Source of the DNA: a virus | Length of the DNA stretch: 56,578 bases | Direction: 5' to 3' (one strand) | Virus record (IMG/VR): IMGVR_UViG_3300031673_016576 | Location: 1-56,578 of that record | In this document: piece by piece, positions 445 through 56,578 of the stretch | Layout of the letters: each line of letters opens with the position of its first letter | Numbering within the stretch: position 1 is the stretch's first letter | Position numbers and translations under genes: made by a program | Notes under the pieces: model-generated | The model's database searches: none | Told to the model about the DNA's origin: nothing | The model's input: the letters and a program-made list of their open reading frames with translations, nothing else

Positions 445-639
445 GTTGAGAGTGGGGGCTAAATAGTCGTGGGTCCCCGACCTGCCACCAGCCCGGAGAA
501 GGCTGGTCGCGGATCAAATCCTAATCCCCGGCCTCGCCGGGGCGCGCGCAGGGAGGTTAGAGATCACGGTGTGATAATGTTACTCCCACGCGCGCGAGGG
601 CACGACGTGTTGTAGCATCACAACTTGCCGGGATTGAGC
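445..639 (+). ncRNA. Putative natural single-guide RNA: scaffold, anti-repeat, solo CRISPR repeat and guide-like tail
   Basis: Positions 445-564 are identical at 119 of 120 positions to the reverse complement of 55116-55235, the scaffold next to the CRISPR array. The first 22 nt match the last codons and stop of the effector gene. Hairpins are visible at 488-506 (CCAGCC/GGCTGG) and 526-542 (CCCCGGC/GCCGGGG). The anti-repeat at 543-555 (CGCGCG...GGGAG) can pair with the repeat at 583-594 (CTCCC...CGCGCG), closing over a small hairpin ATCAC-GGT-GTGAT at 563-575. The single repeat is at 579-606, and the next roughly 33 nt would be the guide. Promoter P1 lies directly upstream. That it works as a guide RNA is inference; the homology and pairing are seen directly. 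The 3' end is set only by analogy with the 33-nt spacers. Confidence 0.7.
579..606 (+). repeat. Solitary CRISPR repeat unit
   Basis: This 28-nt unit begins GTTACTCCCACG and ends GAGGGCACGAC. It matches the repeat at 54869-54896 (reverse complement) except for one base of the central palindrome, and is in the same orientation relative to its scaffold copy. It is 14 nt downstream of the scaffold homology, against 36 nt at the right-hand locus. No second repeat follows, so it is not an array. Confidence 0.85.
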
Positions 640-1923: not shown

Positions 1924-2135
1924 GCGAACAGTGGCCGGAGATGATGGCGAGCGCGGCAGTGCTGATTGCGACGGCGGCAGGGGCGATGATCGAACTTGCC
2001 GCTATGGATGCCGCCAACAGGGATCGCGAATCAAATGGGCTCGCACAAGCCTATGGTGAAGAGCAGATCCGAGAGGTTAGTACGATGTATGGCCTGGGCG
2101 TCAATGACATCCGTTGTGCAATGCCGAGGAGGTAG
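1920..2135 (+). CDS. Hypothetical protein with N-terminal hydrophobic helix, 71 aa
   Basis: A GTG start overlaps the previous stop (GTGA). Residues 9-26 (MASAAVLIATAAGAMIEL) could form a membrane helix, and the rest is hydrophilic. No family recognised. The coding frame ends shortly before the Shine-Dalgarno of the secreted protein at 2143. Confidence 0.55.
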   Translation: MSEQWPEMMASAAVLIATAAGAMIELAAMDAANRDRESNGLAQAYGEEQIREVSTMYGLGVNDIRCAMPRR

Positions 2136-2142
2136 AAACGAC

Positions 2143-3858
2143 ATGAGACGACTGCTGACTGCCGCACTACTGTTTCTGGTTGTGCTGTGCGCGCCGACGT
2201 GGGCGAGCCTGACACATCAGCCGAACTACACCCACACCAAGGTTGTGATGATCGACTATCGTCAGAAGAACACGGCGGAGGAGTTGGACTTCCTGGGGAG
2301 CCATGCCGATCTCATCATTGGTGGCACATCGGAGGGCCACGGAGACGTCCCAGGACTGGTGTACACGAACTACTACTGCGTGTACGTCGGCAACGAGGAG
2401 TACGAGGATGCCAAGGCCTGGGCGGCGCAGCGGGGCGTTGACTTCGAGGCCTTCTTCATCCACTACGCCGAGGCAACAGAGGCTAGATTCGGAAGCGAGA
2501 CCCACATCCTCCCCGCCAGCAGTCGGGTGCCGACCTACAACTGGTATGGTAGTGGTGGGATCCTGACTCGGCAGGGTGCGCGCGTGGTGACAAATCCTGG
2601 CAATCCCAATTACCGGGCGTGGAGGCTGGACTATCTCGAATCGGTCATGGGCGACAAGTACGACGGTGTCTTCATCGACAACACGTCCTTCGACCACTTC
2701 ATCCAGCCGCCCACGATCCTCAGAGGCGGTTCCATCGCGGAATATCCCACGGATCCCGGACCGTCCTATGGGACCGCTCTGCTGAGCCTCTTCGCCGATT
2801 TCAGTGTCAGGTTCGGGTCCACCAAGGCGCAGGTCCCGAACGTATCGATGTACCCGGACGACCCGCGCGTGTACCCCTATGTGTGGGGCTTCTACCGGGA
2901 GGGCTGGAACCAGCCCAACAACGCGTCAAACTACGCTACGATCGAGAAGAACATCGTTGATTCCACCGCGGTTGGAGTCGTCGCCAACGCGCTGGGAGGC
3001 TTCGCCGCGGAGCCGCGATACGAGATGCCCCTCTTGGCCAACTTCTACCTCGTCAAGAACGAGACATGCCACTTCTTCCCGTTCCTCGCGCACGTCAGGG
3101 ACGGGTGGGACATCGACCCCAGGCTCAACCAGTGGTTCGGTGCGGTGGCATACGATGTCGGTCAGCCCAGGGGCGGCCGCTATATTCTACAGGCCGGAAT
3201 CGATCCATCGTCGCCGCGGCGCGACGTGATGACGGCGACTACCAAGAAGACTGGGTACAGTTATCGTCTCACCGATCCGACCAAGAACTGGACGGCTGAG
3301 CAGTGGCGCAATCTGTGGGTGTTCTTCCCTAGCGGTTACGCCATCAAGGCCTACCATAGCGGAGACAACTGGATCGACCTGTACGACCCGAAGGAAGTGC
3401 CGAACGATGGGGTCTATCAACTCGGCAACTACACCTATGGGATCCAGGCCCGTGATTACGACAACGCACTCGTGCTGATGAGATCACGGCTATGGGACAG
3501 TCTAGAGGTAGGAGATTCGTCAGCGGTAGATGTGGTGCTGCCTATGACCGAGGACAATCCACTGGGCCAATACTATGTGCTCGACCGCGACGGGGTGGTA
3601 GGCACGACAGTACTGACCTCGATCTCGCTGCGGGCGGCAGATGGTGCAGTACTCGTGAAGGCGGAGCTGCCCGAATCAGAGCCGTTGGCACTGGAGCGAT
3701 CAGGTGTTGCCGTGCTTCGTGCCGAGGCAGTCGAGACGGCGCGTTGCTCGTTCTGTGATGCGGCGGGACCAGGGCTGGAGATCACGCTGGATGCGTTGGG
3801 GATTCGAGTCGTGGTGACCATCTGCTTGGACTGCCTGGGTGAACTAGGCCTGCGTTAG
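2143..3858 (+). CDS. Secreted glycoside-hydrolase-like protein with C-terminal cysteine pairs, 571 aa
   Basis: The ATG at 2143 follows GAGGAGG and opens a typical signal peptide (positive MRR, hydrophobic LLTAALLFLVVLC, cleavage near TWA-SL). An open frame extends upstream to 1996 but lies over the previous gene, so 2143 is preferred. The body resembles TIM-barrel putative glycoside hydrolases: an early VVMIDYRQ strand and YDGVFIDNT with an acidic residue at a strand end, as in catalytic positions of such families. The C-terminus has CSFC...CLDC, an unusual ending for a secreted enzyme. It may be a host-envelope or exopolysaccharide depolymerase; substrate unknown. The TnpB element is inserted a few bases after its stop. 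Confidence 0.65.
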   Translation: MRRLLTAALLFLVVLCAPTWASLTHQPNYTHTKVVMIDYRQKNTAEELDFLGSHADLIIGGTSEGHGDVPGLVYTNYYCVYVGNEEYEDAKAWAAQRGVDFEAFFIHYAEATEARFGSETHILPASSRVPTYNWYGSGGILTRQGARVVTNPGNPNYRAWRLDYLESVMGDKYDGVFIDNTSFDHFIQPPTILRGGSIAEYPTDPGPSYGTALLSLFADFSVRFGSTKAQVPNVSMYPDDPRVYPYVWGFYREGWNQPNNASNYATIEKNIVDSTAVGVVANALGGFAAEPRYEMPLLANFYLVKNETCHFFPFLAHVRDGWDIDPRLNQWFGAVAYDVGQPRGGRYILQAGIDPSSPRRDVMTATTKKTGYSYRLTDPTKNWTAEQWRNLWVFFPSGYAIKAYHSGDNWIDLYDPKEVPNDGVYQLGNYTYGIQARDYDNALVLMRSRLWDSLEVGDSSAVDVVLPMTEDNPLGQYYVLDRDGVVGTTVLTSISLRAADGAVLVKAELPESEPLALERSGVAVLRAEAVETARCSFCDAAGPGLEITLDALGIRVVVTICLDCLGELGLR

Positions 3859-3864
3859 GGGGCG

Positions 3865-4020
3865 GTCAGCTACCCCCGGCTAAAGCCGGGAGCTTGTCCC
3901 AGACGCATACGCGAGTGCGTATGTCGGAACCATTGGCAGGTTGACGGCTGCCCTGGCTCGGAACGCGATGTTCTGAGCCGCGATGTGGTCCGCAAGGCCA
4001 GTGTGCCCGCAGGACCGACA
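3865..4020 (-). ncRNA. Predicted omegaRNA overlapping the tnpB 3' end
   Basis: By analogy with TnpB elements, the guide RNA is made from the 3' end of the tnpB transcript through the right-end hairpin (3875-3890), with the guide copied from the flank below 3865. The hairpin and ending are visible; the RNA itself and its 5' limit are inferred. If correct, the guide corresponds to the 3' end of the gene at 2143-3858 and its short intergenic region, read on the minus strand. Confidence 0.5.
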
Positions 4021-4998
4021 AAGGAAGACGCTTTGACTGGAACGGTTGGCTTTTTCAATATGGCCGCAGACAGGACACTGGCGCGAGGTATTGCGCGGAT
4101 CGACCGCTACCAGTGCTATCCCGGCGCGCTTTGCCTTGTACGAAAGGTAGCCGCGGAGTTGAGCGAAAGACCAGTTAGCAAGTTGTGCTCGCTGTCGCCG
4201 GCGAACCGTGACCCTATCGCGTATCCCGCCGAGTTCTTCGATGGCAATGGCGCGATGGGTGTCTTCGGCGTTCTGCACAACCGCTTTGCTGATCCGGTGA
4301 TTCATATCCTTCTGATACCGGGCCTGCTTTCCGCGTATCTTCTTGAGTTTGCGGCGGGCTGGGTGCGTGCTCTTGCGCTGCAAATTGCGACGGCGGTGGG
4401 CGAAGGTGCGACGCGACTCCTCAACGGCCTTACCGGAGTAGACTGTGCCGTCGCTATCAGTGAGGATGTTGACGATGCCTAGGTCGCAACCGAGCACGCC
4501 GGATACGTCCCTCGGCTCCGGCTCCTCGACGTTGCAGGTGGCGAAGAGATACCACTTGCCCTTGACGAGCGCCAAATCGGACTCTCCCTGCTGAGTGGCG
4601 AGGAGGGCGCGCTGGCGCTCGCCGCACACGAAGGGGATAGTTTGGCGGCCGGCGACAGTCCAGATAGAAACCTCGGAGGCCGCGACTTTCCAGCGCAGGA
4701 TGCGAGAGTCGTAGGCGATGCTTCCGGTAGGGCGAAAAGTTCGTCGCGCCCTCCGGTCGAGTTTGTAGGCGTCACAGACCTTGGCAATGCAACGGACTGT
4801 CACCTGGGCACTCAGGGCAAACCGCTCTCGGACTTGGTGATAGGTCAGGCGGTGCAGGGCAAACTGCCCGAAAACTCTCCGATCCCATGCCTCCCCAGAG
4901 ATGTAATCGCAGGCGGCGTTGGCGACCTTCAATGTTTGTCGGAGAACCGCGGCCTGGTCGGGGCGGGGAAGCAATTTCACTTGCGCGACGAGTCTCAT
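3880..4998 (-). CDS. tnpB: TnpB RNA-guided nuclease, 372 aa
   Basis: TnpB uses an omegaRNA to cut DNA next to a short target motif and helps retain IS200/IS605 elements. The RuvC triad is intact: D172 in GCDLGI, E254 in AIEELGG and D337 in LADHIAAQNI, with the zinc ribbon CPVC...CRSC at 308-330 between the last two. The C-terminal YASGTSSRL is characteristic of right-end-encoded tails. The start is the ATG at 4998; six codons upstream would lie over the promoter -10 box. With the -10 only 6 nt upstream, the mRNA is predicted to be leaderless. Length is normal for TnpB and no frameshift is seen, so it is probably active. Confidence 0.92.
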   Translation of the reverse strand: MRLVAQVKLLPRPDQAAVLRQTLKVANAACDYISGEAWDRRVFGQFALHRLTYHQVRERFALSAQVTVRCIAKVCDAYKLDRRARRTFRPTGSIAYDSRILRWKVAASEVSIWTVAGRQTIPFVCGERQRALLATQQGESDLALVKGKWYLFATCNVEEPEPRDVSGVLGCDLGIVNILTDSDGTVYSGKAVEESRRTFAHRRRNLQRKSTHPARRKLKKIRGKQARYQKDMNHRISKAVVQNAEDTHRAIAIEELGGIRDRVTVRRRQRAQLANWSFAQLRGYLSYKAKRAGIALVAVDPRNTSRQCPVCGHIEKANRSSQSVFLCRSCGHTGLADHIAAQNIAFRARAAVNLPMVPTYALAYASGTSSRL

Positions 4999-5004
4999 GG
5001 TTCT

Positions 5005-5033
5005 AGTATAGAGCATCGAGGCCGGTTTGTCAA
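5005..5033 (-). promoter_or_regulatory. Leaderless promoter of tnpB
   Basis: On the minus strand: TTGACA (5033-5028), exactly 17 nt, TATACT (5010-5005), then 6 nt to the ATG at 4998. This places the expected transcription start on the A of ATG. The same geometry is seen for the HNH gene promoter at 22431-22459. Confidence 0.75.
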
Positions 5034-5093
5034 CCGGAAAGGCCGCTTCCTCCCCGCACTGAAAGTACGGGGTATCCGCGGCGGGAGGTTTCG

Positions 5094-5219
5094 ATGAGTA
5101 CTGCCGTTCGCTGGACGTGCGGTGATCTCTTCTGTGGTGCCAACGTAGTCAAGGTGGTCAACGTCGAGCCGCGTGATACAGAATCTGGAGTTGTGCTGCA
5201 AAAGGAAACTGACGGCTGA
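5094..5219 (+). CDS. Hypothetical protein, 41 aa, next to IS left end
   Basis: The ATG at 5094 follows GGGAGG by 5 nt. The 41 codons contain two cysteines (TCGDLFCG) and end with KETDG. The start lies at or within the outer end of the tnpB element, so this may be the remnant of a longer gene cut by the insertion and now using a start near the element. Coding status is uncertain. Confidence 0.4.
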   Translation: MSTAVRWTCGDLFCGANVVKVVNVEPRDTESGVVLQKETDG

Positions 5220-30868: not shown

Positions 30869-31464
30869 TCGTCGTCGCCGACTGCAAGCCTCTCGTCAAG
30901 CAGGCCTTGGAGGGGTGCCGGTTTCCCGGTGGGCTTCGTATCTGGTACGTCGAACAGGACCACTTCCGCTACCGCGGCCTCTCCGGTGCTTATGAGCAAG
31001 GCGTTGTATTCGCGTTGACCCTGCCCATGGCAGAATGGGTCATAACCGTGGATTGTGGGACCTGGCAGCCATCCCAGATCACTGCCGCACTTGATGCAAC
31101 CGTATCGGAGCGTGCTTGGTTTGGTGTGCGTCCACTAACCGGTGGACGTTCCCGCCTCAAACTCTTTCTCACCCAATTCGGTGGCGCGCTGATCCGCCGT
31201 CGCACCGGTGTTGGCATAATCGATCCGACCTGCGGCTATCGGGCCTATGCGGCCGAGACACTACGCGAAATCGACTTCGCCGCCAACGGCGTCCCTAATC
31301 GGCTTTACCACGCCAAGCTCGCAGTACAAGTCCAGTGTGTTGTTGCCCTGGCCTACATCGGCGAGTTTCTCTGTACCCACCGCCCGACTCCATCGAAGAT
31401 GCGGCTGCGCGACGCAGTTACCGCGCTCTGGTACGTACTCCGAGGAGGGTTGGGTCATGTTTGA
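30727..31464 (+). CDS. Glycosyltransferase family 2-like protein, 245 aa
   Basis: GTG at 30727 has GAGGAGG upstream; the region before residue 20 overlaps other frames. The core runs VVVFPIKNERYSDVIAYLQS, VVVADCKPLV, then VITVDCGTWQPSQI where the GT2 DxD would be (VDCG, altered), and IIDPTCGYRAYAAETL, which resembles the acceptor region of polyprenyl-phosphate sugar transferases. No membrane helices at the C-terminus. Second enzyme of the cluster. Confidence 0.75.
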   Translation: MEKPWRGSAPSRRAPIEGRVVVFPIKNERYSDVIAYLQSWDGRARELVVVADCKPLVKQALEGCRFPGGLRIWYVEQDHFRYRGLSGAYEQGVVFALTLPMAEWVITVDCGTWQPSQITAALDATVSERAWFGVRPLTGGRSRLKLFLTQFGGALIRRRTGVGIIDPTCGYRAYAAETLREIDFAANGVPNRLYHAKLAVQVQCVVALAYIGEFLCTHRPTPSKMRLRDAVTALWYVLRGGLGHV

Positions 31465-32239
31465 TGGACTCGTCAGCGTTATTGTCACGAGTTGGAACCG
31501 TGAAGAGGTGGTTGACTGCCTTGTCTCGATCTCTCGCCACACCGACGAGACTACCTACGAAGTGATTGTGACCGACAACGGGTCGGATGAGGGCTTGCAG
31601 CGAGAACTCCAAAAATGCCAGCACTGTGGTCTTATCAATAGGTTGCTGTTGCGATCGCCGGGAGACTGCCAGTCCTGGGCGGCATCAATGAACGAGGCTG
31701 TTCTGGCCAGTCAAGGCATGTGGCTGGTCGTTCCGAGCCTTGCCAACGACTTCATCGTCACCCCTAACTGGCTCGGCGCGATGGGGCAAGTTGCGCGGCG
31801 TGACGATGCTAGACGTGTCCACTGGGCATTCGCTGTGACTCAAGATGGACAGCAGATGCAGGCCGAGGGCTTCGGTGGCTATGTCTTAGAACCGGCGCGC
31901 TACGCCCACGATCCAAACGACGATCCCGACTACACCGGACACGCCTTGCTGCACCGCGGTCTGTGGGATGCGGTCGGTCCCTATGATACCCAGTTCGAGC
32001 CGATCTATATGGAGGATGTGGACTGGGGTATTCGACTCCACATGTACTTGTCCAGTGAGATCGATCCTGTAGCGGCCTTGCAGTACCGGCCCGCCATTCA
32101 ACTCGTGCCCGACGCTGTTTTGATCCACACCAAGATCCATACCGTTCGAGGTCATGGTGCCGCGATGTGGGGTCGGAACCGCGACCGACTCTTAGCGAAG
32201 TATCCAGCAATCAAACAAGCACTGGAGGCGCAGCGATGA
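31457..32239 (+). CDS. Glycosyltransferase family 2 (rhamnosyltransferase-like), 260 aa
   Basis: ATG at 31457 follows GAGGAGGG and overlaps the previous gene by 8 nt. GT-A features: VSVIVTSWNREEVVDCLVSI, VIVTDNGSDE, then a long loop to PNWLGAM, and GLWDAVGPYDTQFEPIYMED (ED acceptor-base motif). The DxD equivalent is not obvious (SLANDF). The stop overlaps the next start. Confidence 0.85.
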   Translation: MFDGLVSVIVTSWNREEVVDCLVSISRHTDETTYEVIVTDNGSDEGLQRELQKCQHCGLINRLLLRSPGDCQSWAASMNEAVLASQGMWLVVPSLANDFIVTPNWLGAMGQVARRDDARRVHWAFAVTQDGQQMQAEGFGGYVLEPARYAHDPNDDPDYTGHALLHRGLWDAVGPYDTQFEPIYMEDVDWGIRLHMYLSSEIDPVAALQYRPAIQLVPDAVLIHTKIHTVRGHGAAMWGRNRDRLLAKYPAIKQALEAQR

Positions 32240-35603: not shown

Positions 35604-36370
35604 TGACTAAAAGAGATCCGGCCAAAAAGAAAGAGTATGATCAGCAATACTGCCTCCAGAATCAGGAGGCCATCCGTGCGAGGCATAAGGCATACTATGA
35701 AGCAAATCGAGATGCCATCGTCGTGAGACAGAAGGCATACTACGAGACAAACCGGGAGAATCTTCTGATACAAAGTCGGCAGTATCGTGAAGAGCACCGC
35801 GCTGAGTTGGGGATACAAGAGGCCATCTACCGTGAGAAGAATCGAGAAGCACTCCGTATAACAGCAAAAGCTTATCGGAGGGCGAATCCAGAAAAGGTGA
35901 AGGCGAAGAATGCTGCTTATTATCAGAAGAATCGAGATGCCCTTCGCGCGAAGCGGAAGATATATCGGGAGGCGAATCGGGAGGAACGCTGTATCGCGGC
36001 GAAGCGGTGGCAAGAGAACAACCCCGACAAATACGCAGCGATTCACCAAAGAAGCGAGCACCGCCGACGCGCCCGGCTTGCCAATGTTTCGGGTGAGTAC
36101 ACCCAAGAGCAGTGGTATCAAATACTTACTCGGTATGGTATGGCCTGTGCCAAGTGTGGGCGGTCTCTTACGCGACGCTCTGCAACTGTAGATCACTTCG
36201 TTCCAATTGTTGCTGGTGGTCCGAACTGCGCCGAGAACTTGCAACCGTTATGTAAATCATGTAACAGTCGTAAGCATACTCGAATACCCACGTTTGAGGA
36301 ACAGTTAGCATTCATCGCACGTCGCAAGGCACTAGGCCTTCCAGCCGCCTTGATCGCGGAGGTGCTCTAA
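35603..36370 (+). CDS. HNH homing-type endonuclease with helical repeats, 255 aa
   Basis: ATG at 35603 overlaps the TGA of the chaperone. The first 145 residues contain about seven 17-19-residue repeats (pattern K-A-Y-Y-E-x-N-R-D/E), a helical DNA-binding linker. The C-terminal half is an HNH_5-like nuclease: CAKCG, TVDHFVPIVAGG, NLQPLCKSCNSRK. A paralogue follows directly. Free-standing HNH genes in the tail operon are typical selfish insertions. Confidence 0.88.
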   Translation: MTKRDPAKKKEYDQQYCLQNQEAIRARHKAYYEANRDAIVVRQKAYYETNRENLLIQSRQYREEHRAELGIQEAIYREKNREALRITAKAYRRANPEKVKAKNAAYYQKNRDALRAKRKIYREANREERCIAAKRWQENNPDKYAAIHQRSEHRRRARLANVSGEYTQEQWYQILTRYGMACAKCGRSLTRRSATVDHFVPIVAGGPNCAENLQPLCKSCNSRKHTRIPTFEEQLAFIARRKALGLPAALIAEVL

Positions 36371-36371
36371 G

Positions 36372-36857
36372 ATGCCACTCAAAGATCCTGTCAAGCGAAA
36401 GGAATATCGACGGCAATGGCGCCTCCAGACCCGGGATGCCCGTCACGCGACAGAGAAAGTATGGCGGGAAGCGAACCGGGATGCCTGTCGCGCGAAAAAG
36501 AAAGTGTGGCAGGCAGCGAACCGGGATGCCCGTCGAAGGGGTGCACAGCGGAGGCGCGCTTGTATTACCAATGTTCCGGGTGAATACACCAAAGATGAAT
36601 GGCAGGATGTGCTTGTCCGATACGGCATGACTTGTGCTATATGCGGACATCCCTTTACAGCGCGGTCCGCGACAGTAGACCACTTTGTTCCTCTGAGTGC
36701 GGGTGGTCCTGCCTTTATTAGTAATATTCAACCCCTGTGTAAATCATGCAACAGTCGCAAGGGTAGTCGGATACCTACGTTTGAGGAACAACTCGCATTC
36801 ATCGCTCATCGAAAGACGCTAGGCCTTCCAGCCGCTTTGGTCGCGGAGGTGCTCTAA
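36372..36857 (+). CDS. HNH homing-type endonuclease, tandem paralogue, 161 aa
   Basis: ATG at 36372 is 1 nt after the previous stop, with GGAGG in the end of the upstream gene. It has two or three of the helical repeats (KVWREANRDACRAKK), then CAICG, TVDHFVPLSAGG and CKSCNSRKGSRIPTFEEQL. The last 30 residues are almost identical to the upstream gene, so this is a tandem duplication with shortening of the repeat region. Its end supplies the ribosome site of the tape measure. Confidence 0.88.
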   Translation: MPLKDPVKRKEYRRQWRLQTRDARHATEKVWREANRDACRAKKKVWQAANRDARRRGAQRRRACITNVPGEYTKDEWQDVLVRYGMTCAICGHPFTARSATVDHFVPLSAGGPAFISNIQPLCKSCNSRKGSRIPTFEEQLAFIAHRKTLGLPAALVAEVL

Positions 36858-36858
36858 G

Positions 36859-39800
36859 CTGCCAAGCGCTCAATATTCCTATTTGCTCGGAATAGGCTTG
36901 GACCCGGTCACCGTCCAAAGGCTGCAGGCACAGCTAATCCAGCTCGCCCAGCAGGCCTCGAAAGTCGGTACGGCCCAGGCGCGTACCACTGTGGGTGTCA
37001 CCCCACAGCAAACCACCGCAACCCAACGCGCCACACGTCAGGCCGCGGCTGGCTTTGCTACTACAAGTAAGCAGGCTACGCAGGCAACCCAAGCAGTCAA
37101 AGGCTTCGGTGGCGCGATGCAAGAGGCGGGTCGCGGAATCTCTCATGCCGCGGGCAAGGTCCTTCTGTGGAGCGTGGCAACAGGTGCGATCTACGGTTCA
37201 CTGCAAGCCCTCCGCGGTGCTGTCGAGACCATCAACGACGTGGACTTCGCGTTGACTGGTTTGAGGAAGGTATACGCCGGAAACATCGCTGATCTCGGTC
37301 AGATGAAGAGGGCCGCGGTCGATATGGCGATGGCTTATGGTTCTGGAATCTCCGACGTCCTGAATGGTATGCGCGACTGGGCTCGGCAGGGCTACCGTGC
37401 TCGTGATGTAATCGAGTTGACAAGGGTTAGCTTGCTTGCCCAGAACATCGCCGAGATGGATGCTGTACAAGCAACCCGCTACTTGACGGCGGCCCTGAAT
37501 CAGTTTGATCTTGAGGCCACTCAAGCAATTACTGTCCTCGACACGTGGAACGAACTAAGCAACCGCTATGCCGCAACGACGCAGGACATCGCGGAAGGCA
37601 CTGCCCGCCTCGGCCGCACCGCCCACGATGCTGGCCTCTCGATCCAAGAAGCCAGCGCGATGGTCGCCGTTCTAGTCGAGCAGACGAAGCGATCGGGCCA
37701 AGAAATCGGAACGGCGATGCGTACCGTTCTGACCTACGCCTATCGCGAGCGCAACGTCAAAGAGCTTGAGAAGATCGGCATTTATGTTCGCCGTGAGCGG
37801 GGCGAACTGCTGGCTATGATGGACGTTTTGACGCAGCTATCTGTCAAGTGGGAGGTACTTAGCGATACCCAGCGTCAGGCCATTGCTGAAGCCTTCGGCG
37901 TGCGGCGGGTCACCGAGTTCCGGACCCTAATCCAGGGCATGCCCGCCATCCTTGAGGCGACGCGCATCGCGTATGACAGCCAAGGCTCCGCGTTGCGGGA
38001 GAACATCATCTTTCTGGATTCCCTGCAGGTCCGTTATGGGCGGTTGAAGGCCGCGCTTCAAGCACTCGCGGTCGGAACGGAAACGCAGGATACGTTGAAG
38101 AGCATTGTCAGCGTACTCACCAGCCTCGTTACCGTTGTCGATAAGGTTGGCATCAAGACCATCTTCGCTGCGGGCGCTCTGGTTCTGATCACGCGCTACA
38201 CCCAAGCCTACTCGGCCGCGCTGATTACGTTCCATACCCAAATGGTTTTGGGCACACAAGCAGTAGCGGCAGGTACGGTGACAATGGCGGCATGGCAACT
38301 CCAGGTCAATGCTGCAACACTTGCCCTGCAGCGATTCTGGGTCACACTTGGTCCTGTTGGTTGGGCCGTGGCCGCTGTTGGTGTTGCTTTCGGGACTTGG
38401 AAGGCCATTGATGCTTATGTTTATCGCCATGAGCGTGCGGCACGTGGACTGGAGCGACAGGCCGAGGACATTGAGCAAACAACCCTGGAGGCGCTTCGCC
38501 GCGAAGAAGCTGGCTACCGCGCCCAGGTCGACGCGTTGACGCGGCGTGCCGAACTGATCCAATCCTTACGTGATCAGTACGAAGCGGTTGGAAAGAGTAC
38601 TGATAAGGCCGCGGACAAGCAAAAGCAGATGGCGAAGATCCTCGAACTGCTTCAAGCCGCAACGGGTGATGCCAGCTTAGCTTTACGCGACGGCTTAGCT
38701 CCCGCATTTGGCATCGTCGAGCGCGCCGCACAGAGCGCTCTTATCGGCATTACCGATGCGATGGACAAGATGCGGGCCAGTATTGCCCAAACACTGCGGG
38801 GACAAATCCAGGGTATTAGGGGCGATATCGAACTGCGCAGAGATGCCGTCGATAACTTTGCGAAGGCCGCGGAGAGAGAACGCAAGACGGTCCTTGGCAT
38901 GTTCGACACTATTGCTAAGGGGCAGAAGCTGTATGTTGACCCCTTTGCCGGTGTGGATCGAAAAGATGCCGAGGCTGTGTTGTCTCGGACACATGAGATG
39001 AAGGATCTGTCCGGCCTGCAGACCGGTGTTACCAACAGGCTCAGCAATGCGGTGGGTGAGTACAACGTTGCGGCGGGTCGTCGAATCGAGTTGGAGGGTA
39101 CACTCAAGACCACTGAACAAGCCCTACTCGAACTCGAAATGGAACGCGCCGATCTTCCCAAAAGGATCGTATCGGATCCGGATCCGCTCGGCACTAAGAA
39201 AGCTGGTAAGAGCCTCCGCAGTTATCAGAATCAGGTCCGATCCGTTATCAATCTGGTACGCGAACTCCAACAGGCGATGCGGCGTATGGGCGCGGAAGGT
39301 CTCGGGCCGTGGTATCAAGAAATCCAACGCTTCGACCAGACTTGGGAGGATATGCAGGACCGCGCGCTGATGGCGTTGGACCAGATCAATGAAACCTTGT
39401 CCGAAGATATCCCGGCACAGGCGCGCAAAGCCCTGCTTGGGGCACGTGACGAACTGGTCGGCGTGCTCAACACCTTCGCTACTCAATATCCCCTAGAGTT
39501 CCAGCGCGCATGGGAACGTGCACTGCATATCATCCGCGGCGGTGCTGAGGCATTACAGTTCCAGCTCCGTGAGTACCGCGAAGAGTTGGAGAAGACCCTA
39601 GCCGATTGGGTTCGGCGCGGTAAGATCACGCCCGACCAGGCAACGGAGATGCAACGGCTCGCCACGCTGACCAAGCAATTCGAGGTCATCTCTAAGAGTG
39701 CCGATCTGCTGGAACGGCAGTACCAGTTCGAACGACAAATCACAGAACTCGAAATGGGGAAGGGTTGGGAGTTCTCGCGTGAACGCGCCGAGATGTTGCG

Positions 39801-53689: not shown

Positions 53690-54580
53690 TCAGAACTCAC
53701 CGCCATCCTTCCACTTCGTGGTGTAGTCAGCACCTACGGTAACTGGCAGTCGGGCCTGCCAACGCCCCCGCCAACGGTTGTAGTTGAGCGTATACATCAA
53801 CTGATCGTAGTTCAGAAGGCCGGCCGGGAGCTCTCTGATGCCCAACCCTTCGGCGACTGCACGCGCCTGATCACCATAGGCAGGTTGGGAACCGGCCGCA
53901 CCTCCACCATGGTCGGCTCGAATCGGTAAGGTGCGGATGTGCCATCCCGCTGCCAACCACGCACAGCAGACCTCGCGGTCGTACCAGTGATGGAGGCCGG
54001 GATAGTCCTGATCGAGAAGAGTTGGGATTGTGTCGGTACGATAGAAGATGCCGCAGCCGTCAAGAGTAGCCGAAGCCATTCCGTCATCAGGTGTCCACGC
54101 GCCATGGATGCGCCATATCTCACCGGTTCCGTTGCCCCCCCATTGCTTACCAATCAGACGGGAGTGGGTACCGATACGCCCCCCATCCGGTGCCAGTCCG
54201 AACGCACCGACTAAACCGGCAAGGCCCAGCTTCGCATCTTCCTCGAAGGCGTGTGCGATACAAAGATCCCATCCGACATCCCAGATCAAGACATCGTAAT
54301 GGATGAAGGCGAGGATGTCGGCATCGGTGTAGTCGGCGGCGTATCGGATCGACTCGAAAACGCCCAAGCTTTGATCCGGCACGAAGTAGCGGGTGTGTCC
54401 CCGGTCTTTCGTGATGGTGCCGCAAAGTCCGGCATGCGTTGTAATCACGTCGAGATCAGGGGTGTTGTCGACAACAATGATCTCGGTGCCCGAATCGGAA
54501 ACTGTCCGCACGACCTGAGCAAGACATGCCTCAAGTAGGTCTGTTCGACCAAGTACTGGAATCGCGACTGCGACCCTCAT
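53690..54580 (-). CDS. Glycosyltransferase family 2, 296 aa
   Basis: First gene of the leftward operon. GT-A features: VAVAIPVLGRTDLLEACLAQ, IIVVDNTPD, FESIRYAADYTDADILAFIH with the DxL strand, and a WYDRE acceptor-base-like pair. ATG at 54580 follows GGGGTGAG. Promoter at 54620-54648. Confidence 0.82.
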   Translation of the reverse strand: MRVAVAIPVLGRTDLLEACLAQVVRTVSDSGTEIIVVDNTPDLDVITTHAGLCGTITKDRGHTRYFVPDQSLGVFESIRYAADYTDADILAFIHYDVLIWDVGWDLCIAHAFEEDAKLGLAGLVGAFGLAPDGGRIGTHSRLIGKQWGGNGTGEIWRIHGAWTPDDGMASATLDGCGIFYRTDTIPTLLDQDYPGLHHWYDREVCCAWLAAGWHIRTLPIRADHGGGAAGSQPAYGDQARAVAEGLGIRELPAGLLNYDQLMYTLNYNRWRGRWQARLPVTVGADYTTKWKDGGEF

Positions 54581-54701: not shown

Positions 54702-55079
54702 CCAGCATCCTCGCGCGCGTAGGAGTGACTGTGTGGTATACCATAGTAATCGTGCCCTCGCGCGCGTGGAAGTAACCAACAGTAAGGCGGCAACGGAACC
54801 GGCGAGGTCGTCGTGCCCTCGCGCGCGTGGAGGTAACGTGTGGCGCGTTGGGTTTCTGTGGTTTGCTGGTCGTGCCCTCGCGCGCGTGGGAGTAACGGCC
54901 AATATCCTACCCATCTTAGGCAACACATCGTCGTGCCCTCGCGTGCGTGGAAATAACCGCCCTTGTTTCGTCACTGAAGGCGGTCCAACCGTCGTGCCCT
55001 CGCGCGCGAGGGAGTAACCCGGAGGCCGCCAGGAAGAGGGGGAATCCAGAGGTCGTGCCCTCGCGCGCGAGGGAGTAAC
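54702..55079 (-). CRISPR. CRISPR array: seven 28-nt repeats, six spacers
   Basis: Repeats (plus-strand positions): 55052-55079, 54991-55018, 54930-54957, 54869-54896, 54810-54837, 54749-54776 and a degenerate one at 54702-54729 (20 of 28 matching). In minus-strand reading each starts GTTACTCCC, has a palindromic core (CCCTCGCGCGCGAGGG in the two leader-side copies) and ends GCACGAC. Spacers from the leader side are 33, 33, 33, 31, 33 and 19 nt. Orientation is set by the degenerate end and by the scaffold and effector lying upstream. No cas1 or cas2 is visible. No exact match of the five long spacers was noticed in the window. Confidence 0.93.
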
Positions 55080-55115: not shown

Positions 55116-55235
55116 ATCTCTACCCTCCCTGCGCGCGCCCCGGCGAGGCCGGGGATTAGGATTTGATCCGCGACCAGCCTTCTCCGGGCTGGTGGCAGGT
55201 CGGGGACCCACGACTATTTAGCCCCCACTCTCAAC
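55116..55235 (-). ncRNA. tracrRNA-like scaffold overlapping the effector gene 3' end
   Basis: The minus-strand RNA begins within the last seven codons of the effector (stop at 55216-55214) and extends to the leader. It has hairpins at 55174-55192 and 55138-55154 and an anti-repeat at 55124-55137 whose CGCGCG and AGGGAG can pair with the 5' half of each repeat. A second copy at 445-564 differs at a single base. This mirrors omegaRNA position in TnpB loci and tracrRNA function in compact type V systems; its function is inferred. Confidence 0.75.
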
Positions 55236-56578
55236 GCTCCAAAGGAGCGGTGGAACCCTCGATAGCCTCCTGATGTATTCCACTCCGCCTTGCGATAAAA
55301 CGCCCGCCGAGCGATGTTCACAGCAGCTGCCTCGTCGGCGTCGAAATTGACATCACAAGCCGGACAGTAGAGATCTTCACCTTCCCGTTTGGCATCCTCC
55401 CCACACCGAGGACAAATCAACGATGAGTAAGCAGCGAAGACCTCGCGTGGTGGTAACATACCAGCCATCCGCAACTTGTAGCTGAGGATATGACCCATCT
55501 TGGCATACTGGGAACGTATAAATGCGCCGCTTGTCTGTAGGTTGAGATCTTCCATCACTACCAACGAGTGGTGCTCAACGGCCAACGCAACCAACGCATT
55601 GGCGATTGTGTGGAGCATCTGCTCTTGGTGTCGACGCTGCCAGGCTTGACGACGCACATGCCGACCACGCCTCTGTGCGGCCTGGCGCTTCCGTCCCAAT
55701 AGGATCTGTAGAGGACGCACGTCCCGACCAAGGCTCCCAACTCTGAGTGGTCGACCCTCTTTGTCTATGATTGCGTATGCCGCCTGTTTGATGATGCCGC
55801 GATCAACTCCAAGATAGGTTTCCTCTTCACCCCGCTCCATACTCTCGACTTGGAACTCGAAGCTTATATGTAGGAAGTACTCGCCATCGCGCCGACAAAG
55901 GCAGGCACAGCGCGCCTTCCCTTTCGTGAGATATTCCTCTTCGTGCCATATCCCAAACGCGAGTGGGAAACGCAACCTTGTAGGCTTCTGTGGCTTCGGC
56001 TGCACCGGTAGTGATACCACCCACTTCTCGTTGTCGAGTCGTTCGAGAGCAAAATCTCGGGCGCGTACATAGAGAAGCGGCCTGACAATCTCGCGCTCCT
56101 CACGTAGCAGACGGGATTGCCACGCTTGGTGGTCGAATGGATCACCAACCCACTCAGCGGCCTCTGCAAGGGCCTTCTGGTACCCATCAGACTGATATCC
56201 GTACAGTGGTGAGGGGTACTGGGGTTCATCAGTTGCGTCCTCATGGTTCTTCCTATCTTCCCAGGCCTGTCGTAGTTTGCAGTACGAAACAAGGTTCGTT
56301 AGGATATCTGATACTAAGCCGTCATATAGAGCGCTTGGCAAATCCGTTGCTGATAGCAAAGGACGGATTTCCTTCATTGCATTGAAGGGGCTGGGGAGTC
56401 TCTTACCATCGTGGAGATCACGAATCCACAGATCAGCCATGGGGCGGCAGCGCTCCAATGTATCTATATAGGCCTTGCTGTAACGGGCGAATACCTGGTC
56501 TAGGAGGGCACGTTTTCCAGTACCGGGATTGTATAGTTTGAGGATGGCTGTTTTCTGTACGATGACTGTGCACCTCAT
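55214..56578 (-). CDS. Compact Cas12/TnpB-like RNA-guided nuclease, 454 aa (start at window edge)
   Basis: A TnpB-sized type V effector. RuvC residues are intact: D259 in YLGVDRGI, E343 in VVMEDLNL and D415 in FDADEAAAVNIARR (the usual NAA is AAA). The zinc ribbon CPRC...CPAC spans 389-408. The N-terminus (TAILKLYNPGTGKRALLDQV) is the normal wedge start, so the ATG at 56578 is plausible though its ribosome site is outside the window. Similarity to the TnpB at 3880 is limited to these motifs. The gene overlaps its scaffold RNA and is followed by the array, with no adaptation genes. Probably phage-used, against competitors or host; nuclease activity is predicted, not shown. Confidence 0.9.
   Translation of the reverse strand: MRCTVIVQKTAILKLYNPGTGKRALLDQVFARYSKAYIDTLERCRPMADLWIRDLHDGKRLPSPFNAMKEIRPLLSATDLPSALYDGLVSDILTNLVSYCKLRQAWEDRKNHEDATDEPQYPSPLYGYQSDGYQKALAEAAEWVGDPFDHQAWQSRLLREEREIVRPLLYVRARDFALERLDNEKWVVSLPVQPKPQKPTRLRFPLAFGIWHEEEYLTKGKARCACLCRRDGEYFLHISFEFQVESMERGEEETYLGVDRGIIKQAAYAIIDKEGRPLRVGSLGRDVRPLQILLGRKRQAAQRRGRHVRRQAWQRRHQEQMLHTIANALVALAVEHHSLVVMEDLNLQTSGAFIRSQYAKMGHILSYKLRMAGMLPPREVFAAYSSLICPRCGEDAKREGEDLYCPACDVNFDADEAAAVNIARRAFYRKAEWNTSGGYRGFHRSFGALRVGAK

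What the first reader, a model, noticed from the sequence alone, without database searches (positions are those of the whole stretch)
3865..5090. A TnpB element and a TnpB-like CRISPR effector in one phage
The genome holds an apparently intact IS605-type tnpB and a separate Cas12-like effector. Their RuvC nucleases could compete for or protect against each other's RNA, and the pair allows direct comparison of ancestral and derived forms within one replicon.
Basis: partly seen in the sequence, partly recalled or inferred. Interest (0 to 1): 0.5.

Follow-up and report, generated by a model that had tools for sequence, protein, structure and literature searches.

The report
Phage tnpB element beside unrelated Cas12
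This phage carries an intact-looking selfish RNA-guided DNA cutter (a TnpB element) and, elsewhere in its genome, a separate small CRISPR cutter; the two are not parent and offspring, and such pairs already have precedents in other phages.

Summary
Window 3880-4998(-) encodes a complete 372-aa TnpB. Its catalytic D-E-D and zinc cysteines are intact, and a strong promoter-like site precedes it. Hairpins stand at both element ends; the right-end one shows covariation over 11 elements. No TnpA was found. A second RuvC protein (55214-56578, 454 aa, complete) adjoins a CRISPR-like array and a tracrRNA-like stretch.

The reading is only partly right. The two proteins are not an ancestral and derived pair: an AU test rejects them as sisters (p 0.0015). 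TnpB groups with a TnpB of an otherwise unrelated viral contig. The effector groups with effectors of a Pseudoalteromonas plasmid and phage, near Salinibacter phage and plasmid ones, most of them array-linked. I found nothing that supports RNA competition.

The tnpB is not decayed. Its age and empty site could not be tested, because no relative covering the site was found.

Most likely this is a selfish TnpB element between two phage genes, its guide aimed at the empty site, living alongside an independent phage type V system. One spacer nearly matches the phage's own tape-measure gene, which suggests related phages as targets.

The pairing has precedents (a 421-kb landfill phage in print; record G007 here), so interest is modest.

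The parts
3880..4998 (-). tnpB, 372 aa from ATG 4998 (listed ORF 3880-5016, 378 aa); RuvC D178, E260, D343 in 378-aa numbering
   Evidence: (D178, E260, D343 invariant in 7 of 7 aligned TnpBs, this one included)
5005..5033 (-). promoter-like site TTGACA-17-TATACT, 11 of 12; transcript would begin almost at the ATG (leaderless)
   Evidence: 1 found in 3700-5200, shuffle mean 0.2; a similar site with the same spacing seen by eye upstream of L005 tnpB
5046..5077 (-). left-end hairpin GGATACCCCGTACTTTCAGTGCGGGGAGGAAG
   Evidence: similar left-end hairpins seen by eye in L003, L004, L008, L032, L043, L045, L046
3865..3895 (-). right-end hairpin (3' end of the presumed omega RNA); the tnpB stop codon lies at its loop
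   Evidence: 6 of 8 pairs have compensatory changes, 18 of 88 cells; 0 of 500 shuffles reach the cell count
3845..3864 (-). presumed TnpB guide (first 20 nt of flank); no second target with 4 or fewer mismatches in 90.8 kb of this phage
   Evidence: next best 20-mer match has 5 mismatches; boundary inferred from the right-end motif
1996..3858 (+). flanking gene, 620 aa, unknown function; its stop codon is 6 nt from the element
   Evidence: no PHROG match
5094..5219 (+). small ORF (41 aa) with a ribosome-binding-site-like GGGAGG just outside the element's left end
55214..56578 (-). array-linked Cas12-like effector, 454 aa, complete
   Evidence: D259, E343, D415 invariant in 3 of 3 aligned
55116..55213 (-). 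tracrRNA-like non-coding stretch; its end pairs with the repeat in a predicted fold
   Evidence: (cofold of the 463-564 copy with the repeat)
54703..55079 (-). CRISPR-like array: six clear 28-nt repeats plus one degenerate, spacers 33, 33, 33, 31, 33 and 20 nt
37006..37036 (+). near-match (29 of 31) of spacer 4 in the phage's own tape-measure gene
   Evidence: 200 shuffled spacers: best 9 mismatches
445..639 (+). second copy of the tracr-like stretch (119 of 120 identical) with a single repeat and a guide-like tail, behind a promoter-like site at 380-408

Best explanation
The feature at 3865-5077 is a TnpA-less IS200/IS605-type insertion that carries a TnpB with a complete active site and its omega RNA, placed between two phage genes. 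It most likely acts as a selfish retention or homing device. The transcript runs through the right-end hairpin into the flank, so the guide equals the flank of the occupied site. TnpB then cuts copies of the phage genome that lack the element, in replicating or co-infecting relatives, which are repaired from the carrier or lost. Shown here: intact gene, catalytic residues, promoter-like site, end hairpins with covariation at the right end, insertion between genes. Inferred: expression, guide boundary, cleavage. The Cas12-like protein 50 kb away is an independent phage type V system with its own array and tracr-like RNA; it does not derive from this tnpB. The two share RuvC/TNB homology; no functional coupling was found.
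For: TnpB complete by profile, with D-E-D in 7 of 7 aligned TnpBs; promoter-like site; right-end hairpin covariation. A profile of 7 TnpBs, which includes this one, finds it full length at 632 bits and the effector only over profile positions 128-351 at 53 bits. TnpB nearest to L005 TnpB, 99/97 support; effector nearest to the J2-1 phage and P. spongiae plasmid effectors, 96/84; sister relation of the two window proteins rejected, p-AU 0.0015. In 20 of the 32.1 kb of L005's contig, and in 8 further loci of related records, the only ORF matches to the window are the tnpB, its antisense frames and other RuvC proteins, apart from one weak match (22% over 131 aa) in G002, as expected of a gene that moves between unrelated viruses. 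A gene-drive role of TnpB on plasmids is reported in a preprint (PMC11870625, abstract and outline read).
Against: No empty site and no TnpA in the window, and no second copy among the window repeats, so mobility is not shown. The TAM could not be read: left flanks of relatives share no clear motif by eye. The guide boundary rests on a motif. No expression data. A regulatory role without cutting cannot be excluded by sequence.
Confidence: 0.7

Rival explanations
1. The tnpB is domesticated: the phage uses it as an RNA-guided regulator or exclusion factor (like TldR) and not as a selfish element.
For: Its own promoter-like site, no TnpA, and prophage TldR regulators are in print (PMC13418256, passages read).
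Against: All three catalytic residues are kept, whereas TldRs are described as nuclease-dead; both IS-end hairpins are kept; the guide has no second target with 4 or fewer mismatches in the 90.8 kb of phage sequence at hand. The host is unknown, so host targets were not searched.
Confidence: 0.12
2. The two RNA-guided nucleases are a coupled pair: they share RNA, regulate each other, or one arose from the other inside this phage.
For: Co-residence in the window, and again in record G007 (tnpB 53% identical to this one, plus a 649-aa effector beside three 40-nt repeats).
Against: Sister relation rejected. The effectors of window and G007 come out apart in the best tree, though one clade of the five P0002-family rows plus the G007 effector is not rejected (p-AU 0.13). 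No reported repeat links the two loci. No spacer matches the tnpB element closely: the best listed are spacer 4 with 10 mismatches of 31 and the first 20 bases of spacer 2 with 6 mismatches. The loci lie about 50 kb apart.
Confidence: 0.06
3. The tnpB is a passive, recently arrived or dying insertion with no present effect.
For: Position between genes; non-autonomous (no TnpA); TnpB-like genes are common in phages: 313 of 50,697 phage records match P0001, of which 182 are Salinibacter records, the number that also match the effector P0002 (identity of the two sets not checked record by record).
Against: No stop or frameshift, complete active site, promoter-like site and hairpins intact.
Confidence: 0.12

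Closest known systems
TnpB of IS200/IS605 elements (NCBIfam NF040570), TnpA-less kind
   Same: Nearly full-length profile match, D-E-D, zinc cysteines, end hairpins, presumed RNA overlapping the 3' end of the gene, presumed guide from the flank
   Different: No TnpA found; TAM and empty site unknown; at most 63% identical to any TnpB found here
Phages in print with several TnpB/Cas12 proteins (PMC12607003: a 421-kb landfill phage with two TnpB-like proteins, Cas9, Cas12b2-like and Cas12f1-like; 10 of 114 viral elements with 2-3 type V effectors)
   Same: TnpB-like and Cas12-like proteins in one phage
   Different: The passages I read do not say whether those TnpB-like genes lie in IS elements with ends
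Thermus phage phiLo (MH673673)
   Same: Several genes annotated as IS605 OrfB/TnpB in one cultured phage
   Different: No array of three or more repeats found; one 43-nt pair with 69-nt period only
Compact effectors of Salinibacter ruber M8 phages, S. ruber plasmid pSR16 and P. spongiae plasmid NZ_CP023400
   Same: Relatives of the window effector beside arrays, below the named subtype cut-offs: phage 27% over 97%, plasmid NZ_CP023400 23.5% over 92%, pSR16 27% over 52%
   Different: Repeat sequences differ; tracr-like stretches not compared; phage J2-1 has the effector without repeats in the 6.7 kb read
Thermus Lalka phage TnpB-like gene with array (PMC11437467)
   Same: Phage, TnpB-like effector, 29-bp repeat GTTYYYCCCGTGCGCGCATGGAGGCACCG resembling the window repeat by eye, 32-33 bp spacers, no cas1/cas2 (passages read)
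   Different: Protein and DNA not fetched or compared

Membership tests
TnpB (IS200/IS605) | profile match over cut-off across most of the protein | tested here: met
   NF040570 176.6 bits vs 100, residues 13-352 of 378
TnpB (IS200/IS605) | RuvC D-E-D and CxxC...CxxC zinc ribbon | tested here: met
   D178, E260, D343 and C314, C317, C333, C336 invariant in 7 of 7
TnpB (IS200/IS605) | structured right end overlapping the 3' end of tnpB | tested here: met
TnpB (IS200/IS605) | partner TnpA (optional) | tested here: not met
   PF01797: 0 matches in the window record; many tnpB elements lack it (recalled)
TnpB (IS200/IS605) | TAM at the left end and guide matching the empty site | tested here: inconclusive
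   no relative covering the site found; no shared left-flank motif by eye
TnpB (IS200/IS605) | RNA-guided cleavage | not testable with these tools
   needs a bench assay
TldR (nuclease-dead TnpB repressor) | loss of RuvC catalytic residues | tested here: not met
   all three kept
type V CRISPR-Cas (for 55214-56578) | RuvC/TNB effector next to a repeat-spacer array | tested here: met
type V CRISPR-Cas (for 55214-56578) | adaptation gene cas1 (not required) | tested here: not met
   PF01867: 0 of 2 records, window and G001; cas2 not searched
Cas12e/CasX, Cas12f2 (named subtypes) | curated subtype cut-off | tested here: not met
   CasX 88.9 vs 200 bits, Cas12f2 68 vs 450; PADLOC Cas12f models reach 59 bits, without a curated cut-off

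The most novel reading that the evidence does not exclude
One phage carries two independent RNA-guided weapons against its own kin: a TnpB element whose guide destroys sister genomes that lack it, and an MGE-borne compact type V effector, outside the named subtypes tested, whose spacers come from homologous genes of related phages (spacer 4, tape-measure gene). It would also express an extra single-repeat guide RNA from a second, promoter-linked tracr copy.
Probability: 0.2. Interest if true: 0.6.

Novelty: new member of a known kind. Interest (0 to 1): 0.33.

Why it matters
The pairing is already reported in a larger phage, so it is not new in kind. If both nucleases are active, it gives one replicon in which an element-retention nuclease and a phage CRISPR nuclease can be compared for targets, RNA loading and effect on co-infecting relatives. 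The tree shows that the effector was not made from the resident tnpB, which argues against reading this pair as evolution in place. The array-linked relatives on Salinibacter and Pseudoalteromonas elements are labelled hypothetical, TnpB-family or zinc-ribbon proteins in the three annotated records read.

Tried and rejected
Ancestor-descendant pair inside the phage: rejected by the tree test. The tree left out some fetched or seen proteins: the split RM378 gene (L048), the broken phiLo 143/144 and the third G002 protein (31449-31664). It holds no characterised Cas12 reference.

Array-linked rows as one clade: the five rows of the P0002 family form one side of a branch only weakly (77/50); adding the G007 effector is not rejected (p-AU 0.13) but it lies apart in the best tree. 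One of those five, J2-1, has no array in the stretch read.

Empty site of tnpB: searched through the flanking gene (8 pattern matches, 0 relatives) and the terminase (2 pattern matches, 0 relatives); these searches reach close relatives only. Close TnpBs in cellular genomes: 1 of 398 genomes of the phylum of a Pseudoalteromonas genome at E 1e-50 or better, 34% identical. The TAM idea that the element sits next to a ribosome-binding-site complement (CTCC in the window, L004 and L008) did not hold by eye in L043, L045, L046 and L003.

Targets of the other spacers, the solo guide and the tnpB guide in 90.8 kb of phage sequence: none convincing. Spacer 5 has a 17-of-20 match at 54116 that fades to 24 of 33 over the full spacer; the peptide test gave no support, though the frame of that match holds a stop in the spacer and was skipped. 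Spacer 4 in IMG/VR: only the overlapping record of this phage. Array region against 50,697 phage records: no match.

P0002 in genome contigs: 9 pattern matches, 0 relatives; with the three-sequence alignment 149 pattern matches, 1 relative.

Fold models: P0001 mean pLDDT 68, P0002 55.5. Foldseek ranks an AsCas12f structure first for both, but with query-normalised TM-scores of at most 0.42 and 0.35 among the 50 rows shown, so they only support the superfamily.

The right-end hairpins were picked and trimmed by eye before alignment, which favours the structure. 11 elements were used (window, L003-L008, L032, L043, L045, L046). L044, L047, L048, L053, L054, the phiLo and the haloarchaeal TnpBs were left out.

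Full report
Observation. The window is one virus record of 56,578 bases. It is a fragment: record G001 matches window 15680-56578 at 99.99% and runs 34 kb further. A Pfam scan finds two RuvC/TNB proteins, at 3967-4167(-) and 55313-55507(-), both over the cut-off. The first lies in a 378-aa ORF (3880-5016), which scores 176.6 bits against NCBIfam guided_TnpB (cut-off 100). The true start is probably ATG 4998, giving 372 aa: a TTGACA-17-TATACT site at 5033-5005 would put the first transcript base almost on that ATG, and the nearest relatives begin there. The second, 454 aa, runs to the contig end; the overlapping record shows an in-frame TAG directly before its ATG, so it is complete.

Is the tnpB alive? 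D178, E260, D343 and four zinc cysteines are invariant in 7 of 7 aligned TnpBs. Hairpins are present at both ends. The right-end hairpin has the stop codon of tnpB at its loop. In 11 elements whose right ends I picked and trimmed by eye, 6 of 8 pairs show changes on both sides, 18 of 88 cells. 0 of 500 shuffles reach that number of cells; 34 of 500 reach the number of pairs and 18 of 500 the number of pair types. Sliding the partners by 1 to 3 columns lowers paired cells from 87.5% to 53% or less. So the end structure has been kept across relatives. No Y1 transposase occurs in the record. The element lies between the stop codon of the gene 1996-3858 and a small ORF at 5094-5219. It is not decayed. 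Whether it is recent could not be tested: G001 starts at window 15680, and searches with the flanking gene and the terminase found no relatives in viral contigs.

Relatives and tree. Six viral contigs carry P0001 relatives of 30-61% identity. In nine loci of these six records (none of them a whole record), ORF-to-ORF comparison with the window finds tnpB, its antisense frames and other RuvC proteins, plus one weak match of 22% over 131 aa in G002, so the gene travels between unrelated viruses. A tree of 28 RuvC regions (207 columns) puts the window TnpB with L005 (99/97). It puts the window effector with the P. spongiae plasmid and J2-1 phage effectors (96/84), near those of a Salinibacter phage and plasmid. 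Holding the two window proteins together is rejected, p-AU 0.0015. The effector's end branch is long (1.63), which weakens any fine placement, and 10 of 25 inner branches are open. 'Ancestral and derived forms in one replicon' is thus true only in the loose sense that Cas12 proteins are held to come from TnpB (PMC12669027, passages read).

The effector system. Six clear 28-nt repeats with a period near 61 nt adjoin the effector gene, with a tracr-like stretch whose end pairs with the repeat in a predicted fold. No cas1 was found in the window or G001. The CasX and Cas12f2 cut-offs are not met (88.9 of 200 and 68 of 450 bits). 182 phage records of Salinibacter ruber M8 hold a relative covering at least 80% of the protein; the 25 listed all show 97% and 27.3% identity. 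I read one of these (L023) and two IMG/VR contigs (L028, L030). All three have a downstream array, but the L028 effector and repeats are the same as those of L023, so these are two independent looks at most. The P. spongiae plasmid (8 repeats) and S. ruber plasmid pSR16 (5 repeats) also have arrays; phage J2-1 has none in 6.7 kb. Spacer 4 (31 nt) matches the phage's own tape-measure gene at 37006-37036 with two mismatches; 200 shuffled versions never came under 9 mismatches. The simplest reading is a spacer from a related phage.

Pairing. Among the 7 records with a P0001-like tnpB (window and G002-G007), 3 hold two or more TNB proteins over the cut-off: window 2, G007 2, G002 3. Two have an array beside one of them: the window and G007 (a 649-aa effector, three 40-nt repeats with 77-nt period). 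Arrays were sought in only part of the other sequence: 54.8 of 82.8 kb of G007, 26 of 101.7 kb of G002, 20 of 32.1 kb of G004 and 19 of 30.7 kb of G003, and not in G005 and G006. The exact-repeat script missed the known degenerate array of L030, so I repeated the scan for L034-L038 with the repeat finder, which showed no further array. Pairs of this kind are in print: PMC12607003 (section 12 and other passages read; [quoted passage not shown] Cultured phage phiLo is annotated with several IS605 OrfB genes and shows no array of three or more repeats. PMC6293099 and PMC11437467 (passages read) describe TnpB-like effectors beside arrays in a cyanophage and in three Thermus phages. Five searches on TnpB with Cas12 or phage terms (listings seen) showed no title or abstract opening about RNA competition between such a pair; the library is open-licence only and the key survey (Altae-Tran 2023) was not held.

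Mechanism. For the tnpB I favour retention by cutting the empty site, reported for plasmids in the preprint PMC11870625 (abstract and outline read). The presumed guide, 3864 down to 3845, is the flank and has no second site with 4 or fewer mismatches in 90.8 kb of this phage. Expression, guide boundary, TAM and cleavage are inferred. For the effector, targeting of related phages is suggested by one spacer only.

Verdict. The finding is real, the proposed relation of the two proteins is not supported, and the pairing is a new example of a known situation.

Noticed in passing
window 445-639 (+): A 120-nt copy (119 identical) of the last effector codons plus tracr-like stretch, followed by one repeat and a guide-like tail, behind a TTGACA-17-TACCAT site: in a predicted fold it resembles a natural single guide RNA. 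No target found in 90.8 kb.
   Followed up: partly
window 54838-54868 and 37006-37036: Spacer 4 of the phage array matches the phage's own tape-measure gene at 29 of 31 bases; positions -3 to -1 beside the match read CCA.
   Followed up: partly
window 54777-54809 and 54116-54148: Spacer 5 shares 17 of its first 20 bases with the neighbouring gene 53690-54580; over 33 bases only 24 match, so it may be chance.
   Followed up: partly
L023 4894-5311, L030 7893-8385, L024 3466-3922, L051 4398-4712: Relatives of the window effector in Salinibacter phages, S. ruber plasmid pSR16 and a P. spongiae plasmid stand next to CRISPR-like arrays but are recorded as hypothetical (L023), TnpB-family (L024) or zinc-ribbon (L051) proteins; L030 carries no annotation here. 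Possibly an unnamed family on mobile elements.
   Followed up: partly
L052 2386-3837: Pseudoalteromonas phage J2-1 has an unannotated 483-aa relative (62% identical to the plasmid effector) with no repeats in the 6.7 kb read.
   Followed up: partly
L033 16810-19243 (record G007): A second viral contig with a P0001-like tnpB also holds a 649-aa TnpB/Cas12-like protein beside three 40-nt repeats of 77-nt period.
   Followed up: partly
L055 (record G008, Pseudoalteromonas): A fragment 90% identical to the last 105 residues of the plasmid effector, with two stops inside: apparently a decayed copy.
   Followed up: no
window 36242-36377 and 36729-36864: Direct repeat of 136 nt at 85% identity, 487 nt apart, just before the tape-measure gene.
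   Followed up: no
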